Assembly (NCBI GenBank): GCA_011389655.1 | Contig: JAABTX010000028.1 | Coordinates: forward strand, 1 to 34,755 | Length of the DNA: 34,755 nucleotides | DNA from: Thioalkalivibrio sp. | GTDB taxonomy: Bacteria; Pseudomonadota; Gammaproteobacteria; Ectothiorhodospirales; Ectothiorhodospiraceae | Direction of reading: 5' to 3' | Part shown: piece by piece, positions 8,977 through 34,755 of the stretch | Numbering within the stretch: position 1 is the first letter of the stretch | How the letters are laid out: each line of letters starts with the position of its first letter | The notes under the pieces: generated by a model | The model's database searches: none | Told to the model about the DNA's origin: nothing | What the model saw: the letters and a program-made list of their open reading frames with translations, nothing else | Position numbers and translations under genes: made by a program

Positions 8977-9220
8977 GGTGGGCCCGCTGCGCCTGGCCCA
9001 CCCTACGCCGCTCGGCGGTTCGTACCCGCCCGTAGGGTGGGCAAAACGAAGTGTGCCCACCACAGACCGCCGTGGCCGGAATGGTGGGCCCGCTGCGCCT
9101 GGCCCACCCTACGCCGCTCGGCGGTTCGCTTCCCGCCCGTAGGCTGGGCAAAACGAAGTGTGCCCACCCCAGACCGCCGTGGCCGGAACGGTGGGCCCGC
9201 TGCGCCTGGCCCACCCTACG
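8977..9220. repeat. Tandem array of nested palindromic repeats (about 107-bp period)
   Basis: Two full units and a leading half unit. Each full unit runs CGTAGGGTGGGC .. GCCCACC .. GGTGGGC .. GGCCCACCCTACG, that is, an outer and an inner inverted repeat. CGTAGG copies start at 9031 and 9138; the second has one change in the arm (GGCTGGGC). The same unit occurs at 31286-31368 and in the array at 34411-34755. It lies between the polA unit and the candidate small RNA and encodes nothing credible. Confidence 0.85.
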
Positions 9221-9290
9221 CCGCTACGGGGCCCGTGTAATACCCTGAATTCGTAAGGGATTTGGTTCCCCGGATCGCATCTTTCTCGCG

Positions 9291-14236: not shown

Positions 14237-16255
14237 TCAGGGCCGCCAGCCCAGGGCCTCGGCCTTGCGCCGGGCGATGCGCGGGAGGTCGGCGGCGACG
14301 AAGTGCTCGTGCAGCACCTGCACGCCGATCATGTGGTTGATCACCGCATCCAGCTGCACCTGGGTGGAGGCCGGGGTGTCCTCGGCCTCGTGCAGCTGGA
14401 ACAGGCGGCGCACGCCATCGGGATCCAGCAGGCCGGCTTCCCGGATCGCCTCGTCTGACAGGTAGCGGTCCGCCAGCGCCTTCATTGCCGCCCACTTCTT
14501 TGGATCGGTGTGGGCCGGCGGCGCCATGAAGGCGAACTTCTCGCGCTCGTACAGCACCCGCGGCAATACTCCCTTCATCGCCTCGCGCAGCACGTACTTC
14601 TCGGTGCGGCCCTTGATCCGCAGGGTCGGCGGGATCTGGGCCGCGAATTCGGCGAGGTGGTGGTCGAGGAACGGCGGGCGCGCCTCCATGGAGTTCGCCA
14701 TGTCCACGCGGTCGCCGCCCCAGGTCAGGATCTGCCCTTCCAGCATGGTCTTGATCCAGACGTACTGCGCCTTGTCGAGCGGGTGCCGGCCCTCGAGCAT
14801 GTCGCCGTCCAGCGCATCCGCGATTGCGGTGCCCGGCTGGTAGCCCTCCAGCCGCTCGCGGCGCTCGGGTGCAAGCAGGCCGGGGACATGCACCGCGGTC
14901 GCCAGCCAGGGCTGCAGGCAGGACGGCGTGAAGCCGACCAGCCCGGTCAGCGCGGGATCGTCGATCTCGTCCTGGGCCAGCATCGCGCCGGTCACCAGCT
15001 TGTTGCTCTCGCTGAGGAGCTGCTGCCAGGAGGCCCGGTCGGCCTCCGGCAGGGTGTCCAGGCCGTGCAGGAACAGGTCCCGGCGGAAGGCCGGGTATCC
15101 GGCGAAGAGTTCGTCGGAGCCCTCGCCGGTGACCACCACCTTGTAGCCGGCCTTGTTCACGTGCCGGCTCATCAGCAGCTTCGCCACGCCGAGCGTGTTG
15201 TAGATGGTGCGTTCGGCGTGCCAGAGCGTTTCCACGAAGTTGTCGTAGAGGTGGTCGGCCTGCAGGGTCATCACGTCCTGGTCGGCCCCGACGCTCTCGG
15301 CCATCTCCCGGGCGATGGCGGTCTCGTCGTACTCGACATCGTCGAAGCCGATGGTGAAGGCCTTCACCGGGCTCTGCTGGGTGGCGGCCGCCAGCCCCAG
15401 CGTGATGCAGGAATCGATGCCTCCGGACAGGTAGCAGGCCACCGGCACGTCCGCCTCCAGCCGCAGCTGCACGGCCTCCATCAGGTGCGAGCGCACCCCC
15501 TCGATCCAGTATTCCTCGTCCTCGGGCTTGTGTTCGGCGCGTTCCGATGCCAGCGGGAAGTCCATGTCCCAGTACTTCTCCTCGTGGATCTTCAGCTTTC
15601 CGTGCGCGCGTTCCACGATCACCATGTGCCCCGGCTTCACCTGATGCACGCCCTCGAAGGCAGTGGCGCCCGGGACGGTGGTCTGCATCAGCTGGTGGTA
15701 CAGGCCGGCATCCGAGAACCGGCGCGGCACGTCGGGATGCGCGAACAGCACCTTCAGCTCGGAGCCGAACACGAAGGTCCCGTTGGCCTCCGTGAAATAC
15801 ATCGGCTTGATGCCGAAGCGATCACGGATCAGCACCAGCCGGTCGTGCTCGCGGTCATACAGCGCGATCCCGAACTCGCCCCGGAAGTGCGGGAGCGCAT
15901 CCTCCAGGCCGACCCGGCGGTAGAGGTGCATCACCATCTCGGAGTCGCTCTTGGTACGGAACTTCACGCCGCGCAGGGTCAGGTCCGCGCGGATGCGCTT
16001 GTAGTCGTAGAGTTCGCCATTCACCGCGGTCATGATGCTGCCGTCGTCCATCACGAACGGCTGCCGGCCCCGGTTCTCGTCGAGGTCGATGATGGTCAGC
16101 CGGGCGTGGGAGAAGCCTATCCCGCGGTCCTCCTGCACCCGGTAGCCGAAGCCGTCCGGGCCACGGTGGTACTGGATCGCGGCCATCGCCACCAGCGTCT
16201 CGGGATCGACCGGGCGGTCCGGGTCGGCGTTGAAGATTCCTGCGATGCCACACAT
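14237..16255 (-). CDS. asnB: Asparagine synthetase, glutamine-hydrolysing
   Basis: 672-aa two-domain enzyme that makes asparagine from aspartate, glutamine and ATP. The start MCGIAG exposes Cys2, the glutaminase nucleophile after Met removal; AGGAG lies 7 nt before this ATG, so the longer upstream frame is rejected. Glutaminase motifs are YHRGPDGFG and VNGELYDY. The synthetase domain has the pyrophosphate loop YLSGGIDS and GEGSDELFAGYPAFRRD. The protein is longer than E. coli AsnB (about 554 aa) and nearer to the Bacillus AsnB class (about 630 aa); the extra length is mainly in the C-terminal half. A paralogue acting on another carboxylate cannot be excluded, but no special cluster surrounds it. 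Confidence 0.9.
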   Translation of the reverse strand: MCGIAGIFNADPDRPVDPETLVAMAAIQYHRGPDGFGYRVQEDRGIGFSHARLTIIDLDENRGRQPFVMDDGSIMTAVNGELYDYKRIRADLTLRGVKFRTKSDSEMVMHLYRRVGLEDALPHFRGEFGIALYDREHDRLVLIRDRFGIKPMYFTEANGTFVFGSELKVLFAHPDVPRRFSDAGLYHQLMQTTVPGATAFEGVHQVKPGHMVIVERAHGKLKIHEEKYWDMDFPLASERAEHKPEDEEYWIEGVRSHLMEAVQLRLEADVPVACYLSGGIDSCITLGLAAATQQSPVKAFTIGFDDVEYDETAIAREMAESVGADQDVMTLQADHLYDNFVETLWHAERTIYNTLGVAKLLMSRHVNKAGYKVVVTGEGSDELFAGYPAFRRDLFLHGLDTLPEADRASWQQLLSESNKLVTGAMLAQDEIDDPALTGLVGFTPSCLQPWLATAVHVPGLLAPERRERLEGYQPGTAIADALDGDMLEGRHPLDKAQYVWIKTMLEGQILTWGGDRVDMANSMEARPPFLDHHLAEFAAQIPPTLRIKGRTEKYVLREAMKGVLPRVLYEREKFAFMAPPAHTDPKKWAAMKALADRYLSDEAIREAGLLDPDGVRRLFQLHEAEDTPASTQVQLDAVINHMIGVQVLHEHFVAADLPRIARRKAEALGWRP

Positions 16256-16340
16256 GGCATGTCTCCTGTCGTGTTCAATGTCTGGGTGACCGGTCTTCCG
16301 AAATCGCGACGCGAAGCCCTGGCATCCGGAGTGCCGTGGA

Positions 16341-16450
16341 GGGAGGAATGGCGACGGGCCGGTGGCGGGTGTCGGCAGCAGGGATGCTGCCGTCAAGCCT
16401 ACAGGGATGTGTTTACGGCGTCCCGCCACCGGCCCGTCGCCATTCCTCCC
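16341..16450. repeat. Palindromic element: 52-bp core between 29-bp perfect inverted arms
   Basis: The arm 16341-16369 (starting GGGAGGAATGGCGACGGGCC) is exactly complementary to 16422-16450. The 52-bp core (16370-16421) contains the hairpin GGCAGCAGGGATGCTGCC. The same core, in the other orientation, lies at 25374-25425 between different arms. It fills most of the 221-bp spacer between asnB and the carbamoyltransferase gene, and its first arm could also serve as a terminator stem for the operon. Confidence 0.85.
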
Positions 16451-16476
16451 ATCACCCCGGCCTCAATGAGGCCGAG

Positions 16477-17553
16477 TCACTCTTCCGGAGTATCCATCAC
16501 CGCGCTGATCCGGCGCACCACCGAGGTCAGCAGCGCCATGCGGATGAACACCGCGCCGCGGGCCTGGGCGAAGTACCAGTTGTGCGGGGTATCGTCGAGC
16601 TCGGTCGCCAGCTCCTTGCCCCGCGCGAGCGGGTGCAGGATGATCGCACCGGGCTTCAGCGGGGATTCGCGGGTCAGGTGCAGCCCGGAGCCCAGTGACT
16701 CGAAGCTGTCGCCCACCCACGCGATCGCGTTGATGTACACCACGTCCAGCTCCGGCAGCACCGGGTCGAGTTCGCCCACCACCCGCAGGCGCAGGCCGGC
16801 CTCCTCCAGTTCCTTGCGCTGACCCGCGTCGAAATTCTCGGGCTCGTTCGAGACGATCACCACCTCCCCGACGGCCTCCGGGAAACAGGCCAGCAGCAAC
16901 AGCAGGCTGCGCACCGTGCGCATGCGCGACGGTACGCCGATGATCCCGACGCGGATCCGCTCGCCTTCCGGCACCGGTCCCTGCAGCAGCTCCGGCCGCC
17001 ACTTCGCAATCGTGTACAGATCGGCCATCGCCTGGGTCGGGTGTTCGTCGATGCCGTTGCCCGCGTTCACGATCGGAATGCGCAGGGTGTCCAGCATGTC
17101 GTAGACGGCCTGGTCCTCGCTGCTGCGCAGCACGATCACGTCGCCGTAGTTGTTGAACATCTCGGCGATGTCGGCCAGCGATTCCCCCTTGGCGATGCCG
17201 GTGCTCTTCGGGTCGGTGATCGACATCACCGCGCCGCCCAGGCGGTGCCACGCACTCTCGAAGGAGAGCCGGGTGCGGGTGGAGGGCTCGTAGAAGGCAC
17301 TGATCAGGATCTTTCCGGTCAGCGGCAGGTGCATCAGCTGCGGCGTGGATTCGTACTGGGCGGCCAGCCGGAACAGCTGCGCCAGCTTCGCGCGGTCGAA
17401 CTGGCGGCTGGAGACCACGTGTCTCGACGCCAGCTCCAGCAACGGCTCCGGATCCTCGGGCACCGACTCGAGCAGGCCCCTCGGCCGTTCGATGCCGGCG
17501 GTGCCGTCCTTCGGCTGCAGCGGCCGCTGCAGGAGTCTCTCGTGGGTTGTCAC
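16477..17553 (-). CDS. ATCase/OTCase-family carbamoyltransferase, acceptor probably not aspartate
   Basis: 358-aa carbamoyltransferase related to PyrB. The carbamoyl-phosphate site is complete: FYEPSTRTR (STRTR 91-95), R143, H171-P-T-Q174, the 80s-loop lysine K122 and P308. Residues that hold aspartate in E. coli PyrB are altered: the loop with R229 and Q231 (YMTRVQ) reads YINAIA (273-278), and HPLPR reads HPLAR (307-311). An N-terminal extension of about 45 residues precedes the catalytic domain. It is the last gene of a ureide-type operon, starting with a GTG that overlaps the 40-aa gene stop as GTGA; AGAGGGGA is the ribosome binding site. Databases would probably label it aspartate carbamoyltransferase. 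I infer transfer to, or phosphorolysis of, another ureido compound. No pyrI or pyrC is adjacent. Confidence 0.8.
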   Translation of the reverse strand: MTTHERLLQRPLQPKDGTAGIERPRGLLESVPEDPEPLLELASRHVVSSRQFDRAKLAQLFRLAAQYESTPQLMHLPLTGKILISAFYEPSTRTRLSFESAWHRLGGAVMSITDPKSTGIAKGESLADIAEMFNNYGDVIVLRSSEDQAVYDMLDTLRIPIVNAGNGIDEHPTQAMADLYTIAKWRPELLQGPVPEGERIRVGIIGVPSRMRTVRSLLLLLACFPEAVGEVVIVSNEPENFDAGQRKELEEAGLRLRVVGELDPVLPELDVVYINAIAWVGDSFESLGSGLHLTRESPLKPGAIILHPLARGKELATELDDTPHNWYFAQARGAVFIRMALLTSVVRRISAVMDTPEE

Positions 17554-17672
17554 CACACACTTCCCCTCTTCCAGTCACGAATGAACAGTGCGATCAGCAG
17601 GAACGGTGCCAGCGTGGCAACCGCGGTCGCCACCACCACAACGGTGCCCAGGGCCTCGACGGAGATCATCAT
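17550..17672 (-). CDS. 40-aa single-pass membrane peptide between symporter and carbamoyltransferase
   Basis: A short gene that standard length cut-offs miss. It encodes MMISVEALGTVVVVATAV.. with a hydrophobic span at about residues 8-31 and a positively charged end (IRDWKRGSVW). Its ATG at 17672 overlaps the symporter stop as ATGA, its TGA overlaps the carbamoyltransferase GTG as GTGA, and GAGGTG lies 5-10 nt upstream. Removing it would leave a 115-bp hole in an otherwise gapless operon. Its position suggests a small accessory subunit of the adjacent symporter; that is inference. No family is recognised. An in-frame second ATG at 17669 is possible. Confidence 0.75.
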   Translation of the reverse strand: MMISVEALGTVVVVATAVATLAPFLLIALFIRDWKRGSVW

Positions 17673-19150
17673 CGCGCACCTCGCGTTACCGGCGCTGCAC
17701 TGTGCGGCTCGGCCTCGGCCAGCAGCCGCCAGTCGAAGTCACGCGGCGCCAGCCAGGTGGACAGCACGAGCACCGCGAGCGAGACCGCCGCACCGACCAG
17801 CGCCGCGACGTAGAATCCGATGGTGAAGTAACTGACCAGGCCCAGCGTGGTGCCGGCGATCATGCTCAGGCCGGCACCGGTCGGGTTGGCCCGCCGCCAG
17901 TACAGCCCGGCGACCACCGGCCAGATCGCGCTGGCGACGAAGGCGCCGGTGAAATAAAGCACCTCGGCCAGCGAACCGATCACCGGCAGCTCGCCCCGGT
18001 AGCTCGCGGCGGCCCAGGTCACCAGGCCCAGCAGCACCACGATGACCTTGGTCGCGCGGAACTGCTCGTGATCGGATGCCCTGTTGCGGATGTGGCCGCG
18101 GTAGATGTCCCGCGTGACCAGGTCCGATGTCGCGGCCAGCAGCGAGTCGAGGCTCGAGGCCAGGGCCGCGAAGACCACGATGAAGACCACGATCGCGCCC
18201 GTCAGGCCCAGGACCTCGGCCGCGACCAGCGGACCCACCATGTCCGCAACCGGCACGTTGATGCCCAGCGCCGGAGTGGCCAGCGCAACGAAGCCGGCAA
18301 CGATCGGAATCGGCAGCCACAGCAGGCCGGCCAGCAGGTAGGCCCGGAACCCCACGCTCCTGCCGAAGGCGAAGGCTCGCGACCACCACACGTTCGAGTG
18401 GAAGATCTCGCCGACGCCGAAGAACAGATTGTTGAACAGGAACATGATCGCGGCCGGGAACAGCAGATTCAGCAGTTGCGGGCGCTCTTCCATCAGGTTG
18501 AAGTGGATCGCCTCGAAGCCGACCTTGTCGATGGTCAGCCAGGCGATGAAGGCGACGCCGAGCACGATGATGATCGTCTGCACGAAGTCGGTGCCGATGA
18601 CCGCGCGCAGCCCCCCGAGCAGCGTGTAGAGCACGCAGACCGTGAGGATCACCGTCATGCCTACGCGGTAGTCGATGCCGGCGAGGGCGTTGATGAGCAC
18701 CCCGCCGGCCATGGCGAGGCTGACCAGCCAGCCGAAGGCGTAGATCAGCGACACCACCAGAAAGACCCGCCAGGTGAACTTCCCGAAGCGCAGGCGGATG
18801 AAGTCTCCGGAGGTGAAGCCGTGCGGCATCAGCTCGCGGATGCGCCGGGCCAGCGGTGCGAAGAGGATCAGGCCCAGCGCCCCGAGCGAGTAGCCGAACA
18901 TGCCCCAGACGCCCAGCTGCAGCGCCAGCTGTGGCGCGGTCATCGTGGTGTTCGCGGTCACCCAGGTGGCCATCGCGGTAGCCGTGGCCAGTGCCAGGCC
19001 GACGTTGCGGCCGGCCAGCATGTGGTCCTCGGCGGTCTTGTTCTTGCGGCCGAGGTACCAGCCCAGGATCACCCACAGGATGCCGAAGGCAATCAGGATG
19101 CCCCAGGCAATGCCCTCGGGAAGGATCGCGACTTCTTCGGCGGCGGTCAT
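17669..19150 (-). CDS. Sodium:solute symporter, DUR3 (urea-type) like
   Basis: 493-aa SSS-family transporter with about 13 predicted membrane helices. The N-terminal part (MATWVTANTTMTAPQLALQ, then MPHGFTSGDFIRLRFG) and the FNNLFFGVGEIFHSNVWWS segment resemble the DUR3/urea-active branch more than proline or glucose carriers. The conserved helix with ALASSLDSLLAATSDLVTRD, part of the sodium site in this family, is present. The start ATG overlaps the stop of the isochorismatase gene and the stop overlaps the 40-aa membrane gene, both as ATGA. In context it should import the substrate of the two hydrolases, perhaps urea, a ureide or an N-carbamoyl amino acid. Substrate is not provable from sequence. 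Confidence 0.85.
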   Translation of the reverse strand: MTAAEEVAILPEGIAWGILIAFGILWVILGWYLGRKNKTAEDHMLAGRNVGLALATATAMATWVTANTTMTAPQLALQLGVWGMFGYSLGALGLILFAPLARRIRELMPHGFTSGDFIRLRFGKFTWRVFLVVSLIYAFGWLVSLAMAGGVLINALAGIDYRVGMTVILTVCVLYTLLGGLRAVIGTDFVQTIIIVLGVAFIAWLTIDKVGFEAIHFNLMEERPQLLNLLFPAAIMFLFNNLFFGVGEIFHSNVWWSRAFAFGRSVGFRAYLLAGLLWLPIPIVAGFVALATPALGINVPVADMVGPLVAAEVLGLTGAIVVFIVVFAALASSLDSLLAATSDLVTRDIYRGHIRNRASDHEQFRATKVIVVLLGLVTWAAASYRGELPVIGSLAEVLYFTGAFVASAIWPVVAGLYWRRANPTGAGLSMIAGTTLGLVSYFTIGFYVAALVGAAVSLAVLVLSTWLAPRDFDWRLLAEAEPHSAAPVTRGAR

Positions 19151-19884
19151 GAGGCCTCCCGCACCCGGGTGATCTCGGCGATGGCCTGATCCGTGGTCAT
19201 CACGCGCGCGTAGCGGTCGCGAATGGTGGTGATGGTCGCCTCCTGCAGCTCCGGCGTCACGGTGGCGCAGCCGTCCTCGACCAGCGTGACGTAGAAGCCG
19301 AGGTCACAGGCGTCGCGCACCGCAGTGGACACGCACTCGTTCGAGTACACGCCGACGATGAAGATCGAGCTGATGTCGAGGTTGCGCAGCACATAGTGCA
19401 GGTTGGTCGAATTGAACACGCCGCTCGCGGTCTTGTTCAGCACGATCTCGTCACCGACCGGCGCGACGATCTCGAGGAACTCGGCCTCCTTCGATCCCGG
19501 TGGTGCGTGCAGATTCAGGCGCTTGTGGCCCGGACTGCGGTCGCGGCCATCGCGGGTCATCGACTGGATGCGCGAGTGGATGACCTCCAGTCCGTGGGTT
19601 CGGAAGGCATCCTGCAGCCGGCGCACGTTGGGAAGCACGACCGCCTCGAGTTCCTGGAAGTAGTACTCCTGGGCCTTCAGCGGCACGCCCGAGGCCGCTG
19701 CGTCGGCAAACACCCCGAAGCCGCGCGCCGCGTCGAGGTACTGCAGATCGATGCACAGCAGCGCGACGTGATGCCGCGCGAGTTCCTGGCGCAGCAGACG
19801 CGTGGAGATCAGGCTGCCGCGGTACTGCTCGCGGAGCGGATCGAGCGCGTCGAAGTCGGTGAGCGGGGCGACCTTGTCGTTCAT
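19147..19884 (-). CDS. Isochorismatase-fold cysteine amidohydrolase (RutB/biuret-hydrolase type)
   Basis: 245-aa cysteine hydrolase. The catalytic triad expected for ureidoacrylate, N-carbamoylsarcosine and biuret amidohydrolases is visible: D46 (LLCIDLQ), K151 (VLNKTASGVFNSTNL) and C184 (GVYSNECVSTAVRDACDLGF), with the usual cis-peptide region before the cysteine. The spacing and the DACDLGFYVTLVEDGCAT segment resemble RutB-like enzymes. A 39-residue N-terminal extension precedes the first strand. The ATG at 19884 has GAGGAAG 8-14 nt upstream, in the 14-bp gap after the M20 gene. It probably cleaves a ureido or amide bond in the pathway encoded by this operon; the exact substrate is unknown. 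Confidence 0.85.
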   Translation of the reverse strand: MNDKVAPLTDFDALDPLREQYRGSLISTRLLRQELARHHVALLCIDLQYLDAARGFGVFADAAASGVPLKAQEYYFQELEAVVLPNVRRLQDAFRTHGLEVIHSRIQSMTRDGRDRSPGHKRLNLHAPPGSKEAEFLEIVAPVGDEIVLNKTASGVFNSTNLHYVLRNLDISSIFIVGVYSNECVSTAVRDACDLGFYVTLVEDGCATVTPELQEATITTIRDRYARVMTTDQAIAEITRVREAS

Positions 19885-19898
19885 GCGGCGTCTTCCTC

Positions 19899-21185
19899 TC
19901 AGTGCCTCGCGGCCAGCGCGAGCACGCTGCGCAGCATCAGGTTGGCCCCGGCCTCGATGTCCTCCCAGTTGGTCCACTCGCCGGAGGAGTGGCTGCGTCC
20001 CTCGATGCTGGGCACGAAGATCATCCCGGTGCGGGCGACCGCGCTCATGCTCTGCGTGTCGTGAGCGGCACCGCTGGGCAGGCGCAGGTAGTCGAGGCCC
20101 ATCGTCTCCGCCTCGCTAGCGATCAGGTCCAGCAGGCCGGGATCGCAACGGGTCGGGGTGATCTCGGAGAGGACGTCGAACTCGAACATCAGGTCGCGCC
20201 GCCGGGCGATGCTGGACAGTGTGCGCCGCGAGGCGTCGGACAGGGCCTTCAGTACGCGCTCGTCGGTGTCGCGCACCTCGAGGGAGAAGGTGGCCTGTCC
20301 CGGTATCGTGTTCGGCGCGCCCGGCCACAGTTCCACGCGGCCGATCGTCGCGCGGCTGTTCGGGCCACCGTGCTCCTCGAGGATCCTGTTCACCTCGCCC
20401 CCGAACTCCGCCAGCCCCTGGAAGGCGTCGATGCGCATGTCCATGGGCGTGGTGCCGGCGTGGTTCGGCTGACCCTTCAGCCGTACCTCCCATTTGAACA
20501 GGCCGGTGATCGCCTCGACGATGCCGACGCCGATCCGCCTGCGATCCAGCACCGGCCCCTGCTCGATGTGCAGCTCCAGGAAGGCGTGGATGGTCGCCGG
20601 GTCGCGGCGCGCGGTCAGTGCCTCGTTGGCATCCAGGCCCCAGGCGGCCATCGCGTCCACCAGCGTGACGCCCTCGAGGTCGCGCGCGCTCTGGATGCGC
20701 TCCGGGGTCAGCTGCCCCGCCAGCGCCTGTGAGCCGAACATGCCGCCGAAGCGTCCCTCCTCGTCGCTAAAGTCGATCACCTCGAGCGGGTAGCGCAGCG
20801 GAATCCCCGCCTCCTTCACGCGGCGCAGCACCTCCAGCCCGACCAGGACGCCGAGCGCGCCGTCCAGCGGACCGCCCCCGGGGACGGTATCGAGGTGGGA
20901 GCCCATCACCACCGCGGGCCGCTGGCCGTCGTAGTCCAGCCGGCCGTGCAGATTGGCCGCGCCGTCCTGGAACAGCTCCAGCCCGGCGGTGGCCAGGCGC
21001 TGCCGGAACCAGTCGCGGCCCTGCCGGTCGCCTTCGCTGAAGGCGCGCCGGTTCAGGCCCAGCACCGCATCGCGGCCGATCTGCCCGAGGTCGAGGACGT
21101 CCTGGCGCAGGCGGGCCATGTCCACCTGCAGTCCGCCCTCGGTGGCTGCCGGGGTGGTGCGGACGTGTTCGCTTGCGTCGTTCAT
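19899..21185 (-). CDS. M20-family N-carbamoyl-amino-acid/allantoate-type amidohydrolase
   Basis: 428-aa dinuclear-metal hydrolase of the HyuC/AllC/beta-ureidopropionase group, which removes carbamoyl groups from N-carbamoyl amino acids or allantoate. Metal ligands and catalytic residues appear in GSHLDTVPGGGPLDG (H97, D99, D109), FSDEEGRFGG (E142/E143) and ELHIEQGPVLD (H206). GQPNHAGTTPMDMR belongs to the dimerisation/substrate domain, and SGAAHDTQ supplies the last ligand region. The length is typical (about 410-430 aa). AAGGAG lies 7-12 nt before the ATG, which overlaps the stop of the FnIII-like gene as ATGA. Whether it acts on a carbamoyl amino acid, beta-ureidopropionate or allantoate cannot be read from sequence. 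Confidence 0.9.
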   Translation of the reverse strand: MNDASEHVRTTPAATEGGLQVDMARLRQDVLDLGQIGRDAVLGLNRRAFSEGDRQGRDWFRQRLATAGLELFQDGAANLHGRLDYDGQRPAVVMGSHLDTVPGGGPLDGALGVLVGLEVLRRVKEAGIPLRYPLEVIDFSDEEGRFGGMFGSQALAGQLTPERIQSARDLEGVTLVDAMAAWGLDANEALTARRDPATIHAFLELHIEQGPVLDRRRIGVGIVEAITGLFKWEVRLKGQPNHAGTTPMDMRIDAFQGLAEFGGEVNRILEEHGGPNSRATIGRVELWPGAPNTIPGQATFSLEVRDTDERVLKALSDASRRTLSSIARRRDLMFEFDVLSEITPTRCDPGLLDLIASEAETMGLDYLRLPSGAAHDTQSMSAVARTGMIFVPSIEGRSHSSGEWTNWEDIEAGANLMLRSVLALAARH

Positions 21186-21613
21186 GCCAGTCTCCTTCCC
21201 CGTGCGATGGCCAGGATCAGTACCACGAATAGCGCGGCGCCGAGAGCGAAAAACAGGAAGGCCCGGCCGAGCGGATGGTGTTCCACCACCACCACCGCCT
21301 GGTCGGCCCACTCCTCGGCGCCCTCCTCCCGGATCCGGAAGCGGTATTCGCCATTCGGAAGCCCGCTGATGGTCGTGCGGGTGTCGCTGCCCCGGTAGAT
21401 GATGCGTGCGTCCTCGTACTCCGGCCCCGACGCCTGCTCCAGTTCGAAGCGCTCGGCCCCGTCCCAGTTCAGCTTGAAGAAGCCGGCCGAATCCGTCTCC
21501 GGGGGCGAGTCGAAGGCGGGGTCGGCGATACCCTGGGCCGAGAGCGTCAGCCCGACCAGCACCAGCAGTGACCACAGCAGGGACCGGCACCTGAGCCGCA
21601 CGGGAATCATCAT
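21182..21613 (-). CDS. FnIII-like periplasmic domain with C-terminal membrane anchor
   Basis: 143-aa protein. Residues 11-30 look like a signal peptide; residues 42-110 look like a single fibronectin type III beta-sandwich (FFKLNWDGAERFELEQ, then TTISGLPNGEYRFRIRE, the typical strand-E to strand-F pattern). Residues 117-137 form a membrane helix followed by RGRRLA, so the domain should sit outside the membrane with a short cytoplasmic tail. GGGGAGG lies 7-13 nt before ATG 21613; ATG 21610 is in frame as well. The gene is coupled to the M20 hydrolase by ATGA. Such a protein is unexpected in a small-molecule catabolic operon; it could support the symporter or a binding partner. No named family beyond the fold is recognised. 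Confidence 0.75.
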   Translation of the reverse strand: MMIPVRLRCRSLLWSLLVLVGLTLSAQGIADPAFDSPPETDSAGFFKLNWDGAERFELEQASGPEYEDARIIYRGSDTRTTISGLPNGEYRFRIREEGAEEWADQAVVVVEHHPLGRAFLFFALGAALFVVLILAIARGRRLA

Positions 21614-21759
21614 TCGCGGGCCTCCCCGCGGGCAAGGGCGCGCCGGGCCGCGGTGCAGGGTTTGCGCGCGCCGGGCCGCTGGCGCCGGGGCCAGCCGCGC
21701 TCCGCCGGCGCGGGGAGGGGCCAGCCTCCGGTGCATGCGGGTTGCTCGGTGCGGTTCAT
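21610..21759 (-). CDS. Possible 49-aa protein between marR and the FnIII-like gene
   Basis: A short frame, MNRTEQPACTGGWPLPAP.. to ..RALARGEARE, whose ATG overlaps the marR stop (ATGA) and whose TGA overlaps the ATG of the next gene (ATGA). Third positions are almost all G or C, as in neighbouring genes, but the product is Pro/Arg/Ala-rich and the spacer is itself very GC-rich, so the frame could be open by chance. No ribosome binding site is needed if translation is coupled to marR. No homology is recognised. The alternative is a 142-bp non-coding spacer. Confidence 0.4.
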   Translation of the reverse strand: MNRTEQPACTGGWPLPAPAERGWPRRQRPGARKPCTAARRALARGEARE

Positions 21760-22259
21760 CGGATCCCCTCGTAGGGCTGCAGCCCCGCCTTCGGTTCGGT
21801 CGACGCCATGCGGGCGATGACCGACTCCAGGGCCTCTTCCAGGCCCAGCAACTGCCCGGGTTCCATGTCCTGAAGGGCGCGGTTCAGTTCACCCTGCGGG
21901 GCTGCCGGCGCCCGGTCCAGCAGCGCCTGCCCCGCGTCGGTCACGAAGAGTCGGACGATCCGCTGGTCGCGTCCGCGGCGGCGTTCGACCAGGCCGCCCT
22001 GTTCCAGCTTGTCCAGCAGGTTGGAGGCGGTGGAGGGATGCACGGAGAGCTTCCGCGACAGTTCGCTGACGCTCAGGCCAGCCGAGAGCTGGACCTCCCA
22101 GAGCGCCCAGAGCTGCGCGGCGCTGATGCCGCAGGCGCGCTCCACGCTGCGCGAATGGCCCTGCAGCGCGCGAATGATCACCCGCAACTGGCGGATTACC
22201 GAGCGCACGGCGTCATGCGTGTCGGCGGTGTCCGGGGCCGGGACAAGCTCTGTGGCCAT
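21756..22259 (-). CDS. MarR-family transcriptional regulator
   Basis: 167-aa winged-helix regulator, usually a homodimer that is released from DNA by a small ligand. The DNA-binding helices lie in LSVSELSRKLSVHPSTASNLLDKLEQGGLV and the wing in ERRRGRDQRIVRLFVTDAG, which is the classic MarR DxR wing. The ATG at 22259 (MATELVPAPD) has AGGAA about 9 nt upstream; an in-frame TTG at 22304 would start inside the operator and is rejected. It is the first gene of the operon and is divergent from the porin gene. A 20-bp palindrome upstream is the probable operator, so autorepression and control of the whole operon are likely. Confidence 0.88.
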   Translation of the reverse strand: MATELVPAPDTADTHDAVRSVIRQLRVIIRALQGHSRSVERACGISAAQLWALWEVQLSAGLSVSELSRKLSVHPSTASNLLDKLEQGGLVERRRGRDQRIVRLFVTDAGQALLDRAPAAPQGELNRALQDMEPGQLLGLEEALESVIARMASTEPKAGLQPYEGIR

Positions 22260-22290
22260 CTCTGCGGGTTCCTGATCGGTGAACCAGCCA

Positions 22291-22310
22291 TTAGTTTTGT
22301 GCAAAACTAA
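22291..22310. promoter_or_regulatory. Probable MarR operator
   Basis: TTAGTTTTGTGCAAAACTAA is an inverted repeat with 9-bp perfect arms and a 2-bp centre, a typical MarR-site size. It is 32-51 bp upstream of the marR ATG, in a strikingly AT-rich patch within GC-rich DNA. The rest of the 382-bp divergent spacer (22260-22641) holds the porin promoter region and leader and no other supported gene. Confidence 0.75.
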
Positions 22311-22501
22311 TTACAGCGCAAATGCCTCGGCGGCGACGGGCCGGGCCTGGCAAGCGCACAGCCGCGGACCATTGTCGAGCCTTGGCGGAGCCGACGCCAG
22401 CGCACCGGTTCGGGCCCGGTGCCTGTTGCGACGAGGATACACGCAGGCGGGCGTGTGGGCACAAAAGCAACATGCGTCTGGTCTTGATGTGTCAAATCGG
22501 A

Positions 22502-22507: not shown

Positions 22508-22641
22508 GACGCAACCTCTTCGTTGGGCGCCGGGAATTCAGGGAGTTGGCCGCCCGTTCGTTACTGGCCGCGTGTGGCCGCAAGGACACCATCAGTCTGC
22601 TGCGCTGCGTCCAAACAATGAAAACACCTGGAGAAACGACC

Positions 22642-23805
22642 ATGCTTTCAAGAAAGCTTCTCGCCGCCGCCGTCGCGGCCTCGCTCGTGGTTCCGGGCGT
22701 CGCCGCCGCCGAATACGACAGCATTCAGGTCGGCAACCTGTCGATCGGCGGCGCTTTGCGCGCGAACTACCGCATTGGCGATTACGACGGCACCCGCAGC
22801 GACTTCGACAAGGGCGGTGACTTTTTTCTGGATACCGCCCGGATCAACCTCGACTACGCAAGCGGACCGTGGCTCGGCAAGCTCGAGTACCGCTGGTACA
22901 GCGGTTACAACATGCTGCATACCGGCTGGGTCGGGTACGACTTCGAAAACGAGAGCCAGGTGCAGGTGGGCGTGAATCGCGTGCCCTTCGGGCCCGGCGC
23001 CTACGGTGTGTCCCAGAGCTGGTTCTTCGATCAGCACTACTATGTGGGTCTTTCGGACGACATGGACCTGGGCGTGAAGTACACCCTGCCGGCTGGCGAC
23101 TGGACCTGGGATTTCGGCTATTACCTGCAGGACGAGGGCGACTGGTCGGGCGACACCCGTGACAGCGCGCGCTACTCCTACGATGTCGTGAACGAGAGCG
23201 GCAGTGGCTACGAGGAGCGCAACCAGGTCAACCTCCGCGGCATCTACAGCCTGCCGAACGTCGCGGTCGATACCGACATCGGCTTCTCGGCGCAGTACGG
23301 CGAGCTGGACAGCAAGGGCCCGCAGGGTGACGGCGATCACTACGCGTTGTCCCTGCACATGGTGAACAAGTGGGACAACTGGACGCTGGCCTCCCAGCTG
23401 ACGGGCTACACCTTCGATGTGTCCGCGGACCAGCCGCTCGGCACCGATGAGCTTGTCCAGTTCGGCGCCTTCGACTTCCCGAATACCGTGGCGGCGGAGG
23501 GCTACATTCCGGCTGTATCGCTCAGCTACTTCCTGGAGACCCCGACGATCCCGTGGCTGGACTTCGTGATCCCCTATGCGGAGTACAGCGCCATCCTGAA
23601 GCGGGAGAGCGACTTCAACGACAGCAATCTCGCCGTGCTGGGCGCGGCCTGGGGTCGCGGCAACTGGTACATCTACAGTGAGTTCGCCTTCTCCGACGGC
23701 AACGAGTTCGTCGGTGGGGACACCGCGTTTGGTGACCGTCTGGGTGCCAACGAAGATGACGACTGGCTGACGCGCTTCAACATCAACCTCGGTTACTATT
23801 TCTGA
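22642..23805 (+). CDS. Outer membrane beta-barrel porin
   Basis: 387-aa outer membrane protein. A signal peptide (MLSRKLLAAAVAASLVVPG, cleavage after VAAA) is followed by alternating hydrophobic/polar strands rich in aromatic residues (for example LGKLEYRWYSGYNML, YEERNQVNLRGIYSL) with acidic loops. The protein ends in NINLGYYF; a C-terminal Phe is the usual BAM recognition signal. GGAG lies 8 nt before the ATG. The barrel resembles porins annotated only as putative porin; specificity is unknown. It is divergent from the marR operon and could be the outer-membrane entry for its substrate, but the shared spacer is the only evidence. An intrinsic terminator follows. Confidence 0.88.
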   Translation: MLSRKLLAAAVAASLVVPGVAAAEYDSIQVGNLSIGGALRANYRIGDYDGTRSDFDKGGDFFLDTARINLDYASGPWLGKLEYRWYSGYNMLHTGWVGYDFENESQVQVGVNRVPFGPGAYGVSQSWFFDQHYYVGLSDDMDLGVKYTLPAGDWTWDFGYYLQDEGDWSGDTRDSARYSYDVVNESGSGYEERNQVNLRGIYSLPNVAVDTDIGFSAQYGELDSKGPQGDGDHYALSLHMVNKWDNWTLASQLTGYTFDVSADQPLGTDELVQFGAFDFPNTVAAEGYIPAVSLSYFLETPTIPWLDFVIPYAEYSAILKRESDFNDSNLAVLGAAWGRGNWYIYSEFAFSDGNEFVGGDTAFGDRLGANEDDDWLTRFNINLGYYF

Positions 23806-25355: not shown

Positions 25356-25443
25356 GGTGGCCCGCCCCGCGGGACGCCGTGAATACCTCCCTGTGGGCCT
25401 GACGGCCGCATCCCTGCGGCCGACACCCGCGAGCCGGGCCACC
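25356..25443. repeat. Palindromic element: second copy of the 52-bp core with different arms
   Basis: Arms 25356-25373 and 25426-25443 (18 bp, 16 paired) enclose a 52-bp core (25374-25425) that matches the core at 16370-16421 at about 45 of 52 positions. The inner hairpin is GGCCGCATCCCTGCGGCC here and GGCAGCATCCCTGCTGCC in the other copy, a compensatory change. It lies upstream of the ampG-like gene. Confidence 0.8.
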
Positions 25444-34401: not shown

Positions 34402-34410
34402 CTTCAGGAC

Positions 34411-34755
34411 CGTAGGGTGGGCAAAACGAAGTGTGCCCACCACGGACCGATCCGGCCGGGACGGTGGGCCCGCTGCGCTTGGCCCACCCTACGCCCGAGC
34501 GCGGCTGCGAACGCGGACCGTAGGGTGGGCAAAACGAAGTGTGCCCACCACAGATCGCCGCGGCCGGGATGGTGGGCCCGCTGCGCTTGGCCCACCCTAC
34601 GCCCGAGCGCGGCTGCGAACGCGGACCGTAGGGTGGGCAAAACGAAGTGTGCCCACCACAGATCGCCGCGGCCGGGATGGTGGGCCCGCTGCGCTTGGCC
34701 CACCCTACGCCCGAGCGCGGCTGCGAACGCGGACCGTAGGGTGGGCAAAACGAAG
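34411..34755. repeat. Tandem array of 108-bp nested palindromes, cut by window end
   Basis: CGTAGGGTGGGCAAAACG starts at 34411, 34519, 34627 and 34735, an exact 108-bp period; the last copy is cut by the end of the window. Copies two and three are nearly identical. Each unit has outer arms CGTAGGGTGGGC/GGCCCACCCTACG and inner arms GCCCACC/GGTGGGC. The period is a multiple of three, so a meaningless 36-residue repeat frame stays open on the minus strand. No gene is supported here. Confidence 0.9.

What the first reader, a model, noticed from the sequence alone, without database searches (positions are those of the whole stretch)
16477..22259. Compact operon for a ureide or N-carbamoyl compound, perhaps an undescribed pathway
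Seen: eight minus-strand frames (marR, a possible 49-aa ORF, FnIII-like membrane protein, M20 carbamoylase type, RutB-like cysteine amidohydrolase, DUR3-like symporter, 40-aa membrane peptide, carbamoyltransferase). Six of seven junctions are 4-nt ATGA/GTGA overlaps and the seventh is a 14-bp gap with a strong ribosome binding site. Known: M20 HyuC/AllC enzymes, RutB-like enzymes and carbamoyltransferases all handle ureido groups, and DUR3 carriers move urea. Inference: one imported compound carrying at least one carbamoyl group is dismantled, or its carbamoyl group moved, for nitrogen. No hydantoinase, allantoinase, carbamate kinase or urease is adjacent, so it is not a standard allantoin, hydantoin or Rut cluster.
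Basis: partly seen in the sequence, partly recalled or inferred. Interest (0 to 1): 0.78.

Follow-up and report, generated by a model that had tools for sequence, protein, structure and literature searches.

The report
Salt-protectant operon carrying carbamoyl-glutamine amide genes
A nine-frame operon that looked like a nitrogen-scavenging cluster most likely makes, imports and recycles carbamoyl-glutamine amide, a small salt-protecting molecule known since 1991 for which I found no published genes.

Summary
The eight frames, their coordinates and the tight junctions are confirmed. The operon is longer than stated: a ninth gene (14237-16255), an asparagine-synthetase-like amidotransferase, follows the carbamoyltransferase across a 221-bp gap that holds a dispersed hairpin repeat. 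Related operons show that this pair is the core. The amidotransferase lies on the same strand near the carbamoyltransferase in 64 of 65 relatives with enough flanking DNA. In 370 Gammaproteobacteria genomes the same 23 carry both (Fisher 4e-37). The M20 and isochorismatase-like hydrolases are often absent. An ATP-using amidotransferase points to synthesis, not breakdown.

Best reading: carbamoyl phosphate + L-glutamine -> N-alpha-carbamoyl-glutamine -> its 1-amide (CGA), a compatible solute known from Ectothiorhodospira marismortui. The genome of strain DSM 4180 (L023) carries the pair. The carbamoyltransferase keeps every carbamoyl-phosphate residue and Arg167 but has lost the aspartate residues Arg229 and Gln231; the amidotransferase has lost the aspartate arginine of AsnB. 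The layout parallels the NAGGN osmolyte operon, MarR repressor included. The hydrolases would recycle CGA; the symporter would recapture it.

No enzyme was assayed, published Thioalkalivibrio solute analyses do not mention CGA, and glutamine as acceptor is inferred. I found no paper naming CGA genes; subscription journals could not be searched.

The parts
22290..22311 (.). Candidate MarR operator, palindrome ATTAGTTTTGCACAAAACTAAT (10-nt arms, 2-nt centre), about 30 bp upstream of the marR start codon
   Evidence: Perfect inverted repeat; 0 of 1000 mononucleotide shuffles of the 242-bp region reach 10-nt arms. Counterparts upstream of marR in relatives: TAGTTTTGCACAAAACTA (L032), TATTTTTGTACAAAAATA (L009, L012, L013, L018, L020, L024, L029), TATTTTTGCGCAAAAATA (L014, L015); not found in every relative, and none in Ectothiorhodospira
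21756..22259 (-). MarR-family regulator, 167 aa, first gene of the operon
   Evidence: Pfam MarR/MarR_2 E 1e-11; heads the operon in Thioalkalivibrio and Ectothiorhodospira relatives
21610..21759 (-). 49-aa ORF, probably only a translational coupler
   Evidence: 4-nt overlaps on both sides; sequence conserved only in L032 (75%)
21182..21613 (-). FnIII-like single-pass membrane protein, 143 aa; probable accessory of the symporter
   Evidence: Model with signal helix, beta-sandwich domain, TM helix, FN3 folds as best PDB matches; stays next to the symporter when that moves elsewhere in Ectothiorhodospira (L101, L102)
19899..21185 (-). M20 N-carbamoyl-L-amino-acid amidohydrolase, 428 aa
   Evidence: Over the cut-off of NF006771 (509 vs 399 bits) and TIGR01879 (350 vs 204); second-best family is N-carbamyl-L-glutamate amidohydrolase ErtE (387 vs 520, below cut-off); nearest structure N-carbamoyl-L-amino acid hydrolase 3n5f
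19147..19884 (-). Isochorismatase-fold cysteine amidohydrolase, 245 aa, catalytic triad D46-K151-C184
   Evidence: Triad invariant in 40 aligned sequences; nearest named families biuret hydrolase and RutB, both far below cut-off
17669..19150 (-). SSS-family Na+/solute symporter, 493 aa
   Evidence: PF00474; next to the carbamoyltransferase in 56 of 65 relatives with full flanks; kept unlinked in Ectothiorhodospira and Thiorhodospira
17550..17672 (-). 40-aa single-helix membrane peptide, possible small subunit of the symporter
   Evidence: 35-92% identical homologues next to the symporter or the carbamoyltransferase in about 33 loci and in unlinked symporter locus L101 (55%)
16477..17556 (-). 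Carbamoyltransferase, 359 aa, proposed glutamine N-alpha-carbamoyltransferase
   Evidence: ATCase fold; carbamoyl-phosphate residues invariant, aspartate side-chain residues replaced; below the ATCase and OTCase cut-offs
16256..16476 (.). 221-bp intergenic region with a dispersed hairpin repeat (arms 16336-16369 / 16422-16455; another copy at 25369-25430)
   Evidence: the repeat finder I1 and I4; the gap is 6-25 bp in many relatives
14237..16255 (-). Asparagine-synthetase-like glutamine-dependent amidotransferase, 672 aa, proposed to amidate the alpha-carboxyl of carbamoyl-glutamine
   Evidence: GATase_7 + Asn_synthase; the most constant neighbour of the carbamoyltransferase

Best explanation
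[quoted passage not shown] Step 1 (inferred): the carbamoyltransferase moves the carbamoyl group of carbamoyl phosphate onto the alpha-amine of L-glutamine. Step 2 (inferred): the asparagine-synthetase-like enzyme activates the alpha-carboxyl with ATP and amidates it with ammonia from glutamine, as AsnO does for the osmolyte NAGGN. Step 3 (inferred): the FnIII-SSS-40-aa unit takes CGA, or leaked CGA, back up with Na+. Step 4 (inferred, accessory): when salt falls or nitrogen is needed, the cysteine amidohydrolase removes the 1-amide and the M20 enzyme removes the carbamoyl group, giving back glutamine, CO2 and ammonia. The MarR protein is proposed to repress the operon from a palindromic operator. 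Shown here: gene content, conservation and co-occurrence, preserved catalytic residues, replaced acceptor residues, presence in the CGA-producing strain.
For: (1) Carbamoyltransferase and amidotransferase are an obligate pair: the same 23 of 370 class genomes carry both, adjacent in 22 (Fisher p 4e-37); same strand near each other in 64 of 65 full-flank loci; kept in another class at 44% and 51-53% identity with FN3, SSS and M20 beside them; kept but unlinked in Thiorhodospira sibirica. (2) Carbamoyl-phosphate residues (ATCase S52 T53 R54 T55 K84 R105 H134 Q137) and R167 are invariant in 80 relatives, whereas R229 and Q231 became A/S (one T) and P268 became A: an alpha-amino-acid acceptor without an acidic side chain, such as Gln. 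(3) Amidotransferase: Cys nucleophile, SGGxDS and the AsnB catalytic Glu/Lys invariant in 74; the AsnB aspartate arginine is replaced by Gly. (4) CGA was found in E. marismortui, also called E. mobilis (PMC1224877); its type strain is DSM 4180 (PMC7824335); the E. mobilis DSM 4180 genome (L023) carries marR-M20-ISO-CT-AsnS. (5) The NAGGN osmolyte operon (asparagine synthase, Ngg, aminopeptidase, MarR repressor PA3458) has the same plan (PMC8070244). (6) The cultured, named carriers belong to genera known from saline, soda or marine habitats (habitats from own knowledge); in Ectothiorhodospira the divergent neighbour is sucrose synthase. (7) pyrB and argF are separate genes.
Against: No enzyme activity or solute was measured. 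Published solute analyses of Thioalkalivibrio name glycine betaine and sucrose only (PMC5328954, PMC9062515), and a Raman study found no CGA signal in E. marismortui, though CGA was not in the reference library (PMC3857566). Carriers are not enriched for ectoine synthesis (2/23 vs 52/347, p 0.55). The amidotransferase passes the generic asparagine-synthase cut-off TIGR01536. Glutamine as acceptor rests on the residue pattern and on strain DSM 4180. Whether the isochorismatase-like enzyme cuts the 1-amide or the ureido group is unknown.
Confidence: 0.7

Rival explanations
1. Same logic, different solute: the pair makes another N-carbamoyl amino-acid amide (for example from glutamate, asparagine or another neutral amino acid), or amidates first and carbamoylates second.
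For: The acceptor pocket cannot be read exactly from sequence; only loss of the acidic-side-chain residues is shown.
Against: CGA is the N-carbamoyl amino-acid amide osmolyte known from the strain that carries the pair (PMC1224877); the related osmolyte NAGGN also ends in a glutamine 1-amide; the M20 enzyme's second-best family acts on N-carbamoyl-L-glutamate.
Confidence: 0.15
2. One reading: import and breakdown of a ureide or N-carbamoyl compound for nitrogen, with the carbamoyltransferase running backwards to yield carbamoyl phosphate.
For: Two amidohydrolases and a DUR3-like carrier are present.
Against: An ATP-consuming amidotransferase is the most constant partner; the hydrolases are missing from many operons that keep the pair and the carrier; no carbamate kinase among the neighbouring genes scanned; Rut, Biu and All cut-offs are not met.
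Confidence: 0.08
3. Extra aspartate carbamoyltransferase and asparagine synthetase serving ordinary pyrimidine and asparagine supply.
For: ATCase fold; TIGR01536 cut-off passed.
Against: Aspartate-binding residues are lost in both enzymes; separate pyrB and argF exist; strict co-occurrence of the two with each other is not expected.
Confidence: 0.03
4. Biosynthesis of a carbamoylated, amidated secondary metabolite or signal rather than a bulk osmolyte.
For: Asparagine-synthetase-like enzymes also act in natural-product pathways (PMC13060819).
Against: No other biosynthetic genes are conserved around the pair; conservation across a whole family, 38 of 38 near-complete genomes, fits housekeeping stress physiology better.
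Confidence: 0.04

Closest known systems
NAGGN (N-acetylglutaminylglutamine amide) osmolyte pathway: asnO/ngg, PA3458-PA3461 of Pseudomonas aeruginosa
   Same: Blocks the alpha-amine and the alpha-carboxyl of glutamine units; asparagine-synthetase-like amidotransferase for the 1-amide; a turnover hydrolase in the cluster; MarR regulator (PMC8070244)
   Different: N-cap is a carbamoyl group added by a carbamoyltransferase instead of an acetylated dipeptide made by Ngg; has its own symporter unit; the amidotransferase scores 307 bits against a TIGR03104 cut-off of 570, and the genome holds a separate protein over that cut-off
[quoted passage not shown]
   Same: Proposed product; the E. mobilis DSM 4180 genome carries the pair
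   Different: No gene had been assigned in the papers I could search
Aspartate carbamoyltransferase catalytic chain (PyrB)
   Same: Fold (TM about 0.87 by target length), carbamoyl-phosphate site
   Different: Aspartate side-chain residues replaced; not paired with pyrI or pyrC; below the family cut-off
Asparagine synthetase B
   Same: Class II glutaminase and PPi-synthetase domains with conserved catalytic residues
   Different: About 100 residues longer; aspartate arginine replaced by glycine; paired with a carbamoyltransferase
M20 N-carbamoyl-L-amino-acid hydrolases (HyuC, AllC, ErtE)
   Same: Over the cut-off of the general hydantoinase/carbamoylase families
   Different: Not AllC or ErtE by curated cut-offs; sits with an osmolyte-type synthase pair

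Membership tests
Aspartate carbamoyltransferase (TIGR00670) | Curated score cut-off | tested here: not met
   192 bits against 237
Aspartate carbamoyltransferase (TIGR00670) | Carbamoyl-phosphate residues STRT, K84, R105, H134, Q137 | tested here: met
   Invariant in 80 relatives
Aspartate carbamoyltransferase (TIGR00670) | Aspartate side-chain residues R229 and Q231 | tested here: not met
   A/S (one T at the R229 position) in all 80 relatives; the separate PyrB of the same genome keeps both
Ornithine carbamoyltransferase (TIGR00658) | Curated score cut-off | tested here: not met
   91 bits against 281
Asparagine synthase (TIGR01536) | Curated score cut-off | tested here: met
   411 bits against 267
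Asparagine synthase (AsnB function) | Aspartate-binding arginine of the TTIRA motif | tested here: not met
   Gly (TLGV motif) in the family alignment
NAGGN amidotransferase (TIGR03104) | Curated score cut-off | tested here: not met
   307 bits against 570
NAGGN pathway | Ngg N-acetylglutaminylglutamine synthetase next to the amidotransferase | tested here: not met
   No such gene among the conserved or scanned neighbours
Rut pyrimidine cluster (RutB TIGR03614) | RutB cut-off | tested here: not met
   44.5 bits against 378
Biuret amidohydrolase (NF050097) | BiuH cut-off | tested here: not met
   63 bits against 370
Allantoate deiminase AllC (TIGR03176) | Curated cut-off | tested here: not met
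   248.5 bits against 598
Hydantoinase/carbamoylase family amidase (TIGR01879) | Curated cut-off | tested here: met
   350 bits against 204
DUR3 urea symporter | Urea transport | not testable with these tools
   DUR3 is only the nearest solved structure (E 3e-34)
CGA compatible-solute biosynthesis | Gene set present in the CGA-producing strain | tested here: met
   L023, E. mobilis DSM 4180 (PMC7824335)
CGA compatible-solute biosynthesis | Enzymes form CGA; salt-dependent accumulation | not testable with these tools
   Needs enzyme assay and solute NMR or LC-MS

The most novel reading that the evidence does not exclude
[quoted passage not shown] The solute, reported from one organism, would then be widespread among saline Gammaproteobacteria, marine Leptospiraceae and MAGs labelled Synechococcus.
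Probability: 0.65. Interest if true: 0.8.

Novelty: new variant of a known kind. Interest (0 to 1): 0.72.

Why it matters
CGA was described in 1991 as a compatible solute, was still called known from one organism only in 2013 (PMC3857566), and a 2020 genome survey of phototroph osmolytes mentions it without naming genes in the passages read (PMC7824335). Two marker genes would turn it into a searchable trait, predict it in 38 of 38 near-complete genomes of the window's family and in Idiomarina, Kangiella, Leptospiraceae and Synechococcus-labelled MAGs, and correct annotations that read aspartate carbamoyltransferase and asparagine synthase. It also shows a second way, beside NAGGN, of neutralising glutamine into an uncharged solute.

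Tried and rejected
Nitrogen-catabolic ureide operon: rejected as the core function because the hydrolases are dispensable in relatives and an ATP-dependent amidotransferase is not. Rut, biuret, allantoin and ErtE (ergothioneine) pathways: curated cut-offs not met. NAGGN operon proper: cut-off not met, Ngg not seen nearby. MarR related to a regulator at the NAGGN-type locus of the same genome: no significant match there. Association with ectoine synthesis as a halophile marker: none. The 2010 NAGGN pathway paper is not held. Literature searches for CGA genes found nothing.
Full report
OBSERVATION. The eight minus-strand frames are real, at the stated coordinates, with six 4-nt overlaps and one 14-bp gap. 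Pfam and NCBIfam confirm MarR, M20 carbamoylase, isochorismatase fold, SSS symporter and carbamoyltransferase. The FnIII-like protein models as signal helix, beta sandwich and membrane helix, with FN3 domains as best fold matches. The 49-aa ORF is poorly conserved and probably a coupling spacer.

THE NINTH GENE. Fetching 80 relatives of the carbamoyltransferase and looking for shared neighbours showed a protein of about 670 aa directly downstream in nearly all. In the window it is the asparagine-synthetase-like gene 14237-16255, which begins MCGIAG. Counting only loci with more than 5 kb on both sides, the amidotransferase is near the carbamoyltransferase in 64 of 65, the symporter in 56, M20 in 44, the isochorismatase-like gene in 32 and marR in 25.

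STRENGTH OF THE PAIR. In 370 Gammaproteobacteria genomes, the carbamoyltransferase (E<=1e-70) is in 23 and the amidotransferase (E<=1e-150) in the same 23, adjacent in 22; the exception lies on split contigs (p 4e-37). In the window's family the carbamoyltransferase is in 38 of 38 near-complete genomes. A genome of another class keeps FN3-SSS-carbamoyltransferase-amidotransferase with M20 beside it, the three enzymes and the symporter at 44-56% identity. Thiorhodospira sibirica (G046, matched to L027 by contig coordinates) keeps the pair and the symporter at three separate places, and Ectothiorhodospira species keep the FN3-SSS unit elsewhere, so the genes persist even without linkage.

ACTIVE SITES. 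Aligned with E. coli PyrB, the carbamoyltransferase keeps S52, T53, R54, T55, K84, R105, H134, Q137 and R167 in all 80 relatives. From general knowledge of ATCase, R229 and Q231 hold the aspartate side-chain carboxylate; PMC6056424 confirms R229 and R167 as active-site residues. R229 and Q231 are replaced by Ala or Ser (one Thr), and P268 by Ala, inside two family signatures (Y-I-N-A-I-A-W-x-G and H-P-L-A-R-G); the divergent copy in another class shows the same replacements. The same genome has its own PyrB and ArgF. The amidotransferase keeps the class II glutaminase cysteine, the SGGxDS loop and the AsnB Glu and Lys, but the AsnB aspartate arginine is glycine. The expected substrate is therefore an alpha-amino acid with a neutral side chain, whose carboxyl is then amidated.

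PRODUCT. [quoted passage not shown] It is a compatible solute of Ectothiorhodospira marismortui, also known as E. mobilis (PMC1224877), described in 2013 as found in one organism only (PMC3857566). PMC7824335 gives the type strain as DSM 4180; L023 is E. mobilis DSM 4180, with marR, M20, the isochorismatase-like gene, the carbamoyltransferase and the amidotransferase in a row, and sucrose synthase divergent to it as in the other Ectothiorhodospira loci. PMC7824335 found no known osmolyte genes in T. sibirica and itself named this solute among candidates there; T. sibirica carries the pair.

PARALLEL. The NAGGN operon of Pseudomonas aeruginosa has an asparagine synthase, a synthetase, an aminopeptidase and a MarR repressor, and supports growth in high osmolarity (PMC8070244). 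The present operon has the same kinds of part with a different N-cap. A perfect 10+2+10 palindrome lies about 30 bp before marR (22290-22311), is not reproduced by shuffles, and has counterparts in about ten Thioalkalivibrio loci.

ROLE OF THE HYDROLASES AND THE CARRIER (inferred). M20 carbamoylases act on N-carbamoyl-L-amino acids with a free carboxyl (general knowledge), so the cysteine hydrolase, with its triad D46-K151-C184 invariant in 40 aligned sequences, would first remove the 1-amide. Their absence from Idiomarinaceae operons suits an optional recycling branch. The symporter's nearest solved relative is DUR3; uptake of an uncharged, urea-like solute is plausible but untested.

LIMITS. 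No activity or solute was measured. Thioalkalivibrio solute studies name betaine and sucrose only (PMC5328954, PMC9062515), so CGA may be minor or conditional there. Carriers are not enriched for ectoine synthesis. Habitats of carriers were judged from organism names. The literature held is open-access only, so a report of CGA genes in a subscription journal cannot be excluded.

Noticed in passing
16336-16455 and 25369-25430: Dispersed GC-rich hairpin repeat (34-nt arms, 94% complementary) inserted between the carbamoyltransferase and amidotransferase genes; a second copy lies 9 kb away.
   Followed up: partly
34407-34755 and 8977-9266: Tandem array of about 108-bp units (95% alike) at the window's end and a related 106-107-bp array near 9 kb.
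   Followed up: no
L090 5789-7747 (G000:C113): A second amidotransferase over the NAGGN cut-off (906 bits) lies between a RuBisCO-like large-subunit gene and leucine-biosynthesis genes, with no Ngg seen next to it.
   Followed up: partly
L022 4796-7240 and seven other Ectothiorhodospira loci: Sucrose synthase gene divergent from the operon, linking it to another compatible solute.
   Followed up: partly
L077 14419-15965: In Synechococcus-labelled MAGs the pair is followed by a different M20, a DUF1028 protein and a class I glutamine amidotransferase.
   Followed up: no
L039 7034-7498: A P-II nitrogen-regulatory protein gene lies upstream of the operon in Spirochaetota MAGs.
   Followed up: no
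L027 9861-9980: In Thiorhodospira sibirica the 40-aa peptide stayed in front of the carbamoyltransferase although the symporter moved away, so the peptide may not belong only to the symporter.
   Followed up: no
G010:C1:1194650-1195701: The carbamoyltransferase is split over two frames in one complete Ectothiorhodospira-genus genome while its amidotransferase is intact; frameshift or sequencing error.
   Followed up: no
22546-23805 +: A 419-aa porin-like outer-membrane protein is divergent from the operon (no Pfam hit); Thioalkalivibrio L009 has a Porin_4 gene in the same position.
   Followed up: partly
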